Source: Brachionus koreanus
Lineage: Eukaryota; Rotifera; Eurotatoria; Ploima; Brachionidae
Length of the DNA stretch: 56,849 bases
Assembly (NCBI GenBank): GCA_016987375.1
Contig: PJRA01000048.1
Span: forward strand, 2,101,334-2,158,182
Reading direction: 5' to 3'
Shown here: one piece after another, positions 15,811-16,793 of the stretch
Layout of the letters: each line of letters starts with the position of its first letter
Position numbering within the stretch: the first letter of the stretch is position 1
Position numbers and translations under genes: made by a program
The notes under the pieces: model-generated
Databases searched by the model: none
What the model was told of the DNA's origin: nothing
Seen by the model: only the letters and a program-made list of their open reading frames with translations

Positions 15811-16793
15811 TTAGATTTTTAGACTGAAAACGAGGCTCAAAAAGTCTTCGTATTTAATTGTAATCACTCCATTTTGTTGGTAATCAAACTGTCTAAACGC
15901 ATTTGTAAGTGTCTAAAAAAGAAAAATTGTTTTAAAATCAAAATTTAGAAAACTAAAAATCTAAAAATTTGCATCCAAATAAGTGACAACCAAAAAGTGA
16001 AATAAATTACTTGAATTGACACTGAAGCTTGAATAAAATCGTCAAATGCAATAGTTCCTCTGCCCTGACGATCGAATTTTTTAATTAACAAGTCATAGAA
16101 CATGTCACTTAGTCTATAGCCTTTATTTTCAGAAGCAAAGCAAAAAATTAAAATTCGATTTATTTTACCTGAATTTTAATGCAAATAAAGATGAAATCAT
16201 CGAACAAAATTTTTGATTCAAAAGGCTGCCCCACGCTGGGTTTGGGTGCATTAGAAGCGCTATTCGCTTTAAATTGCAGGTAGCCCATTAATGTATTAAA
16301 AAATTGATCGCTCAATCGGTAACCTTATTAATTCGAGTTTAATTTTGTTCGAAGTTTCTTCCCTATTTTCAAGAAATTTACCAAATGCTGTCAAAGCTAG
16401 TTTAAGCTCGTTTCTGTCAATCGATCCAGAATTGTCTCGATCAAATGATTTGAAACACCTTTGCCAATCATCAATATACTTCCATAGGGACAAGAATTCT
16501 TCGAAGTCAATCGTAGCCGAATTGTCACGGTCGAACATTCCAATCATCATTCTTATGGTGGAGATAAATATTTTATTTAAAAAGCATTTTAGAAAAGTAC
16601 CTAACAGTTTCCGGGTTAAATGGAGTCCAAGTTCCATTAGACAAAGCAGCCTGCAGTTCATGTGCGTTTATTGATCCACTTCCATCGCGATCAACTCTTT
16701 AAAAAAATTAAAATAAATTTATTTTAAAATCGCATTAGGGTTCAAATACTTTCTGAATAACTGCATTAGAAAGTTTCTATCCGGTAGCGACAT
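15811..16793 (-). CDS. PDCD6: PDCD6 / ALG-2 penta-EF-hand protein with alternative EF4 exons
   Basis: ALG-2 is a cytosolic calcium sensor that binds Alix, TSG101 and Sec31A in membrane repair and trafficking. Exons: 16793-16750 (MSLPDRNFLMQLFRK), 16696-16601, 16551-16382, then either 4a (16323-16169) or 4b (16120-16011), then 15912-15811, ending SLVFSLKI. EF1 VDRDGSGSINAHE, EF2 FDRDNSATIDFEE and EF3 FDRDNSGSIDRNE keep good loops. LSNGTWTPFNPETVR and WKYIDDWQ are diagnostic of ALG-2. With 4b the protein is 173 aa and carries the family EF4 (GYRLSDMF..., KKFDRQGRGTIAFDDFIQ). With 4a it is 188 aa. Both exons begin two bases into a Gly codon and end in phase 0, so either fits. Using both shifts the frame to a stop at the fourth codon of 4b. 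The EF5 loop (DYQQNGVI) is degenerate. Introns are short. Confidence 0.9.
16011..16120 (-). other. PDCD6: PDCD6 exon 4b, canonical EF4
   Basis: This 110-nt exon has acceptor aaataaag and donor gtaatt. It encodes GYRLSDMFYDLLIKKF and then DRQGRGTIAFDDF, very close to the vertebrate EF4 segment, and ends SVSIQ before the EF5 exon. Confidence 0.85.
16169..16323 (-). other. PDCD6: PDCD6 exon 4a, divergent EF4 copy
   Basis: This 155-nt exon has acceptor aattaataag and donor gtaaaa. It opens with GYRLSDQFFNTLMGYL and closes with ILFDDFIFICIKIQ, matching 4b at both ends. The EF4 loop is replaced by a longer segment (FKANSASNAPKPSVGQPF) with no calcium ligands in loop order. The frame is fully open and splice sites sit at the homologous positions, so it looks like a duplicated, diverged exon and not intron debris. 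Confidence 0.78.

What the first reader, a model, noticed from the sequence alone, without database searches (positions are those of the whole stretch)
16011..16323. PDCD6/ALG-2 has two tandem, apparently mutually exclusive EF4 exons
Seen in sequence: exons 4a (155 nt) and 4b (110 nt) both open with GYRLSDxF, both start two bases into a Gly codon and end in phase 0, and both have GT-AG sites at the same position of the fold. Joining both gives a stop at once (GCT ATA GAC TAA), so only one can be used. 4b is the normal EF4; 4a replaces the loop with a longer Pro/Ser/Asn segment. Established: vertebrate ALG-2 also has a splice variant lacking Gly121-Phe122, two residues from this junction, that changes target choice (Alix versus others). 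Inference: this animal reached an isoform switch at the same place by exon duplication.
Basis: partly seen in the sequence, partly recalled or inferred. Interest (0 to 1): 0.78.

Follow-up and report, generated by a model that had tools for sequence, protein, structure and literature searches.

The report
Swappable EF4 exons in rotifer ALG-2
A calcium-sensor gene of what looks like a rotifer carries two alternative versions of one exon, so the animal could build the protein either with its usual fourth EF-hand loop or with a longer floppy segment in its place; the kind of switch is known, but I found no report of it in this gene.

Summary
On the minus strand, exons 4a (16323-16169, 155 nt) and 4b (16120-16011, 110 nt) are homologous and share phases and GT-AG sites. 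Each alone gives an open ALG-2/PDCD6 frame (188 or 173 aa); using both puts a stop at the fourth codon of 4b, and using neither breaks the frame. The 4a match is far above chance; its DNA occurs once in the genome.

Five other proteins carry a 4a-type exon: a Brachionus plicatilis gene model and four unnamed unbroken frames on 0.9-1.1 kb contigs, best read as spliced transcripts. Exon 4a runs 51-62 aa; exon 4 is 37 aa in 165 of 172 retrieved proteins. The loop is hypervariable, the ends constrained: position 157 is K/R in 6 of 6 4a, 0 of 165 4b-type. Exon 4 sorts by type; the shared exons do not.

Mutual exclusion rests on frame and on isoforms in relatives; no reads from this species. Functional change is inferred. 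It is a new gene for a known switch. Bdelloid and gastropod proteins suggest swaps of other ALG-2 exons.

The parts
16750..16793 (-). exon 1 of ALG-2/PDCD6 (start codon; MSLPDRNFLMQLFRK)
   Evidence: donor GTATTT
16601..16696 (-). exon 2 (EF1)
   Evidence: TTTAAAG acceptor, GTACTT donor
16382..16551 (-). exon 3 (EF2-EF3), ends one base into the Gly123-equivalent codon
   Evidence: donor GTAAAT; same intron position as human intron 4
16324..16381 (-). intron 3-4a, 58 nt; acceptor with little pyrimidine tract (Y fraction 0.41, longest Y run 3)
16169..16323 (-). exon 4a, 155 nt: GYRLSDQF, then a Ser/Pro/Asn-rich segment in place of the EF4 loop, then LFDDFIFICIKIQ
16121..16168 (-). intron 4a-4b, 48 nt (like the 49-58 nt introns of the same gene)
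16011..16120 (-). exon 4b, 110 nt: ordinary EF4 (GYRLSDMF..KFDRQGRGTIAFDDFIQASVSIQ)
15913..16010 (-). intron 4b-5, 98 nt
15811..15912 (-). exon 5 (EF5, dimer hand) with stop codon

Best explanation
This is a single-copy ALG-2 (PDCD6) gene, probably of a Brachionus-like monogonont rotifer, whose exon 4 was duplicated in tandem before the six known 4a carriers split. The splicing machinery picks 4a or 4b. Double inclusion puts a stop at the start of 4b, about 98 nt before the last junction, so such mRNA should be lost or useless; skipping both also breaks the frame. The 4b product is ordinary ALG-2. The 4a product keeps exons 1-3 and 5, the R125-equivalent gate and the F148-equivalent pocket residue, but its EF4 loop is swapped for a longer helix plus a flexible loop, and its exit helix carries a new constrained face (Y/F/L at 153, K/R at 157). 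Shown: gene structure, reading frames, single copy, conservation and class signature in relatives, unbroken 3-4a-5 and 3-4b-5 frames in relatives. Inferred: mutual exclusion in this animal, regulated choice (4a has the poorest-looking acceptor), and changed target choice. My guess is that the neighbourhood of pocket 3 (Sec31A/COPII-type ligands) and EF3-EF4 coupling change most, with ALIX-type binding less affected.
For: Frames and splice sites. 4a far above shuffled background. One locus with strong ALG-2 similarity, other hits at most 39% identical; 4a DNA once in the genome. B. plicatilis model P0001 has 4a, 188 aa. P0014, P0067, P0121 and P0122 have 4a in unbroken frames on 916-1076-bp contigs, while the window gene spans 983 nt with introns. 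Class signature: 157 is K/R in 6 of 6 4a and 0 of 165 4b-type; 153 is Q in 165 of 165 4b-type and 0 of 6 4a. Exon-4 tree: 4a on one side, 95/95; shared-exon tree: 4b-type P0008 and P0055 sit among 4a carriers. Model of 4a protein P0001: eight helices, helix 109-126 against 110-120 in the model of 4b-type P0008, residues 121-140 at block pLDDT 66 and 56. F148 belongs to pocket 3 (passage of PMC4346919).
Against: No RNA from this species. No single relative was seen with both isoforms. P0122 lacks the R125-equivalent (GYNLSG). The 4a loop has no conserved motif. The exon-4 tree rests on 29 columns, with long branches and an unsettled bootstrap. The 4a model departs from ALG-2 crystal structures more than the 4b model (2zn9_A: TM 0.73, rmsd 3.7 against TM 0.92, rmsd 1.6), so 'same fold with a local change' may understate the effect, or the model may be poor. 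No intron pairing that would enforce exclusion stood out, and the 48-nt intron is not unusual for this gene.
Confidence: 0.87

Rival explanations
1. 4a is a decaying or cryptic exon left by an old duplication, with no protein role.
For: The loop is hypervariable in length and sequence; the acceptor is pyrimidine-poor.
Against: Frame, phase and both flanks kept in 6 sequences with 51-62-aa exons; class-specific residues fixed; unbroken frames on transcript-sized contigs.
Confidence: 0.03
2. 4a marks a separate paralogous gene in relatives, and the window only happens to hold both exons.
For: No relative was seen with both isoforms; the relatives' loci could not be read.
Against: The window gene has both in one locus and the genome shows one ALG-2. 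Shared exons do not separate 4a from 4b carriers (AU p 0.025 against a 4a-only clade, a group chosen after the types were known).
Confidence: 0.06
3. 4a-4b double inclusion is itself a regulated poison transcript that tunes ALG-2 dose, and protein switching is secondary.
For: Double inclusion places a stop about 98 nt upstream of the last junction (from coordinates).
Against: 4a alone is in frame and under protein-level constraint. No product of double inclusion (158 aa) among the 172 retrieved proteins, the shortest of which has 171 aa; but only the best 120 of each of two searches were listed and such a product would score lower.
Confidence: 0.05

Closest known systems
Vertebrate ALG-2 deltaGF122 isoform (PMC2927601: abstract, some sections and passages seen)
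   Same: Same gene, same intron (splits Gly123); splicing changes the EF3-EF4 region and target choice (ALIX lost, Sec31A kept).
   Different: Alternative donor removing two residues, not a duplicated exon; 4a keeps that region and replaces residues between the R125 and F148 equivalents.
Alpha-actinin mutually exclusive EF-hand exons (Waites 1992, seen only as a citation and a sentence in PMC9177970 and PMC9741552)
   Same: Exon choice that changes an EF-hand region of a calcium-regulated protein.
   Different: Different family. The actinin exons were not compared here, so whether they change loop length to a similar degree is not known from my calls.
OGDH exons 4a/4b (PMC7969005, passages seen)
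   Same: Mutually exclusive tandem exons that toggle a calcium-related site; the authors report exclusion through distant branch points in the intervening intron.
   Different: Unrelated enzyme; no branch-point evidence here.

Membership tests
ALG-2/PDCD6 (penta-EF-hand) | Closest solved relatives are ALG-2, above sorcin/grancalcin | tested here: met
   P0001 (4a): 1hqv E 1e-59, best sorcin 1.7e-34; best folds are ALG-2 for both models. These tests used relatives P0001 and P0008, not the window's spliced protein; the window's 4b isoform finds PDCD6 proteins.
ALG-2/PDCD6 (penta-EF-hand) | Five EF-hand units, eight helices | tested here: met
   Eight helices in both models. In the 4a form the EF4 loop is replaced, so the fourth hand is remodelled; Pfam still calls EF-hands in both isoforms.
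ALG-2/PDCD6 (penta-EF-hand) | R125 gate, F148 and Y180 pocket residues | tested here: met
   R125 and F148 equivalents kept in window 4a and 4b (P0122 lacks R125). The Y180 equivalent (KYEDF) was read by eye.
ALG-2/PDCD6 (penta-EF-hand) | Calcium-dependent target binding and dimerisation | not testable with these tools
   No assay.
Mutually exclusive tandem duplicated exons | Adjacent homologous exons with the same phases | tested here: met
Mutually exclusive tandem duplicated exons | Exactly one is used in mature mRNA | tested here: inconclusive
   Frame demands it. Relatives show 4a or 4b, none both, but these are listed proteins, not reads of one species.
Mutually exclusive tandem duplicated exons | An enforcing device (steric, docking RNA, incompatible sites) | tested here: inconclusive
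   Three intron duplexes not better than shuffles: 50, 296 and 54 of 300 as low; of four segments folded, 4a plus both introns z -2.93 and the whole 3-to-5 stretch z -2.05, the other two -0.33 and 0.67.

The most novel reading that the evidence does not exclude
ALG-2 is a repeated target of exon duplication in Spiralia, a different exon in different lines: exon 2 (EF1) in gastropods, exon 3 (EF2-EF3) in bdelloids, exon 4 (EF4) in monogononts and in Mya. Splicing thereby makes one calcium adaptor address different pockets and partners, and the rotifer 4a form would be an ALG-2 tuned mainly at the Sec31A/COPII pocket, complementary to the vertebrate deltaGF122 form that drops ALIX.
Probability: 0.3. 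Interest if true: 0.72.

Novelty: new member of a known kind. Interest (0 to 1): 0.52.

Why it matters
ALG-2 links calcium to ALIX/ESCRT and Sec31A/COPII partners through separate pockets, and how one small adaptor chooses partners is open. A conserved natural isoform that keeps the switch arginine and the pocket phenylalanine but replaces much of what lies between them is a clean natural experiment. It also departs from the pattern reported for human tandem exons, that changes are mostly conservative (abstract and passages of PMC9741552). If the bdelloid and gastropod cases hold, the same gene gained exon switches several times over.

Tried and rejected
Transposon or repeat origin of the 4a insert: not supported, the 171-nt query matches one place in the genome, and no tandem array overlaps it (on 15000-18000; the one array found lies at 17731-17782). 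One search warns that very common words are skipped.

RNA docking between introns as the enforcing device: no support. The z of -2.93 for 4a plus both introns is one of four segments and cannot be tested without relatives' DNA. No Rfam family reaches its cut-off in the window.

Very short intervening intron as the device: 48 nt is like the gene's other introns of 49, 53 and 58 nt, so not argued.

Conserved motif or self-ligand in the 4a loop: rejected by eye, P0121 has no proline there and the others share no motif.

Literature: nine of the ten paper searches (the tenth was for actinin) listed no paper whose title or shown abstract describes duplicated exons in ALG-2/PDCD6 or in a rotifer calcium sensor. 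This covers the held open-licence library only; one search listed 20 of 153 papers and one search listed 9 of 10; I opened five papers (PMC2927601, PMC7969005, PMC4346919, PMC9177970, PMC9741552), none of them whole.

No dN/dS: relatives' DNA was not at hand.

Full report
Setting. The gene lies on the minus strand, 16793-15811. Its protein is ALG-2/PDCD6. A search of the genome with the 4b-form protein gives 34 matches; those of 56-92% identity lie only at this locus, and the others are at most 39% identical.

Anatomy. Exons 1, 2, 3, 4a, 4b, 5 are 44, 96, 170, 155, 110 and 102 nt, with GT-AG introns of 53, 49, 58, 48 and 98 nt. Intron 3 cuts the Gly codon after its first base; exons 4a and 4b both supply the last two bases and both end in phase 0. 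Hence 3-4a-5 gives 188 aa and 3-4b-5 gives 173 aa. 3-4a-4b-5 reads ..KIQ-AID-stop, and 3-5 goes out of frame. The stop in the double product lies at nt 10-12 of 4b, about 98 nt before the 4b-5 junction. Whether this animal degrades such mRNA is not known.

Is 4a real? A local alignment of an EF4 query to all open segments of 20 or more residues in six frames scores 175 for 4b and 68 for 4a. The next two hits (46 and 44) are exons 3 and 5 of the same gene, then 37; the best of 20 shuffled windows is 38. The DNA of 4a with flanks matches one place in the genome.

Relatives. A search with the 4a region returned one hit at E 1e-5 or better, P0001, named by its source 'programmed cell death 6 isoform X2 [Brachionus plicatilis]', 188 aa. 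Its 4a exon is identical in 44 of 52 residues. A search with the 4b isoform (507 hits, best 120 listed) and one with a profile of three 4a isoforms (485 hits, best 120 listed) gave 172 distinct proteins in all. In 165 of 172 exon 4 is 37 residues long. In five it is 4a-type: P0001 52, P0014 52, P0067 51, P0121 55, P0122 62. One (P0043) is a disturbed model and one (P0127) could not be aligned. P0014, P0067, P0121 and P0122 lie on contigs of 916, 954, 963 and 1076 bases yet are unbroken frames of 188-222 residues; a gene with introns like this one could not give that, so I read them as spliced transcripts. The source labels ena, lgn and jgi say no more; I recall lgn as Logan. P0001 comes from a 7,393-base contig and is a gene model, not proof of a transcript. 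P0008 and P0055, 4b-type on 951- and 962-base contigs, fall among them in the tree.

Constraint. In the six 4a sequences FDDF is kept in 6 of 6 and R125 in 5 of 6. The equivalent of human Q153 is Y, F or L (Q in 165 of 165 4b-type). The equivalent of V157 is K or R in 6 of 6, and in 0 of 165 4b-type (V 107, S 29, I 14, T 7, C 3, L 3, N 1, A 1). The middle, 24-35 residues, shares no motif. Such a pattern, variable loop and fixed ends in frame, is not what decay gives.

History. A tree of exons 1-3 plus 5 (23 rows, 142 columns) puts the six 4a carriers with P0008 and P0055 in one group (85/92, not a starred branch). The window with P0001 is starred (98/96). A tree with the six 4a carriers alone as a clade is rejected weakly (p-AU 0.025, group named after types were seen). 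A tree of 29 flank columns of exon 4 (24 rows) puts the six 4a on one side (95/95), with few columns, an unsettled bootstrap and long branches for P0122 and P0067. So exon 4 sorts by type and the backbone does not, as expected for one duplication followed by alternative use. The retrieved proteins named as bdelloid that could be aligned have a 37-residue exon 4, P0043 apart.

Structure. Model of P0001: mean pLDDT 83.2, eight helices, the EF4 entering helix lengthened (109-126) and the blocks 121-140 at pLDDT 66 and 56. Model of 4b-type P0008: pLDDT 88.6, helix 110-120. Best solved match is ALG-2 for both. The 4a model fits less well (2zn9_A TM 0.73, rmsd 3.7) than the 4b model (TM 0.92, rmsd 1.6). 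The alignment was mostly 4b-type, so this difference should be held lightly. Pfam still calls EF-hands in both isoforms of the window, but some pair models score higher in 4b (EF-hand_8 62.7 against 45.2 bits).

Known biology. In the deltaGF122 crystal structure of human ALG-2, calcium sits in EF1, EF3 and EF5, so EF4 is not a main calcium site (PMC2927601 section 7). R125 gates pocket 1 for ALIX (PMC2927601 Background). F148 of EF4 is part of pocket 3 for Sec31A, and F148S reduces Sec31A binding slightly (PMC4346919 passages). The alternative human donor sits in the homologous intron (PMC2927601 Discussion passage). From this I infer that 4a is less a calcium switch than a surface switch beside pocket 3 and along the EF4 exit helix.

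How the choice may be made. The 4a acceptor has the poorest pyrimidine tract of the five (Y fraction 0.41, longest run 3; others 0.59-0.73 and 5-12), which fits an exon that needs help to be used, but n is 5. On the other side, four of six transcript-like contigs in the related group are 4a, so 4a is not rare there; the searches favoured 4a, so this is no estimate of use. No docking pair was found.

Wider. Three gastropod isoform pairs of equal length differ only within EF1. Seven bdelloid models carry EF2-EF3 twice (26-35 of 53 residues alike), with other proteins carrying one copy or the other. A Mya model carries exon 4 twice (27 of the first 30 residues alike). These were read from proteins, not from loci. 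If true, each internal exon of ALG-2 has been duplicated in some spiralian line.

Verdict. It is a well-supported case of a known kind of splicing switch, for which I found no description in the searches named.

Noticed in passing
P0002-P0007, P0009 (bdelloid ALG-2 models) against P0015, P0018 and P0021, P0022, P0038: Seven bdelloid ALG-2 models hold the EF2-EF3 unit (53 aa) twice, 26-35 of 53 residues alike; other proteins carry only the first or only the second copy. Looks like alternative exon 3; double use would keep the frame.
   Followed up: partly
P0032/P0033, P0039/P0050, P0034/P0048 (Gigantopelta, Littorina, Biomphalaria): Equal-length isoform pairs X1/X2 differ only within EF1, as expected for mutually exclusive exon 2.
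   Followed up: partly
P0010 (Mya arenaria, low-quality model): Exon 4 present twice in one model, 27 of the first 30 residues alike, joined by an odd stretch.
   Followed up: no
P0083/P0138 (Coccinella septempunctata): Isoforms X1/X2 of equal length differ from EF2 to the end, more than one exon's worth.
   Followed up: no
window 15811-15912 and 16382-16551: By eye, EF5 of this ALG-2 reads DYQQNG where human has DTDQDG, and EF2 reads DRDNSATIDFEE, closer to a canonical calcium loop than the human EF2; both affect either isoform.
   Followed up: no
window 11696-14281, minus strand: Two long frames that read by eye like the endonuclease and reverse transcriptase of a non-LTR retrotransposon, downstream of the gene.
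   Followed up: no
window 44824-46663, minus strand: Two overlapping frames reading by eye like a calpain catalytic core (DQGQIGNCW...); some calpains also carry penta-EF-hand domains (recalled).
   Followed up: no
window 16121-16381, minus strand: Exon 4a with both flanking introns folds better than shuffles (z -2.93, 100 shuffles, one of four segments tried).
   Followed up: partly
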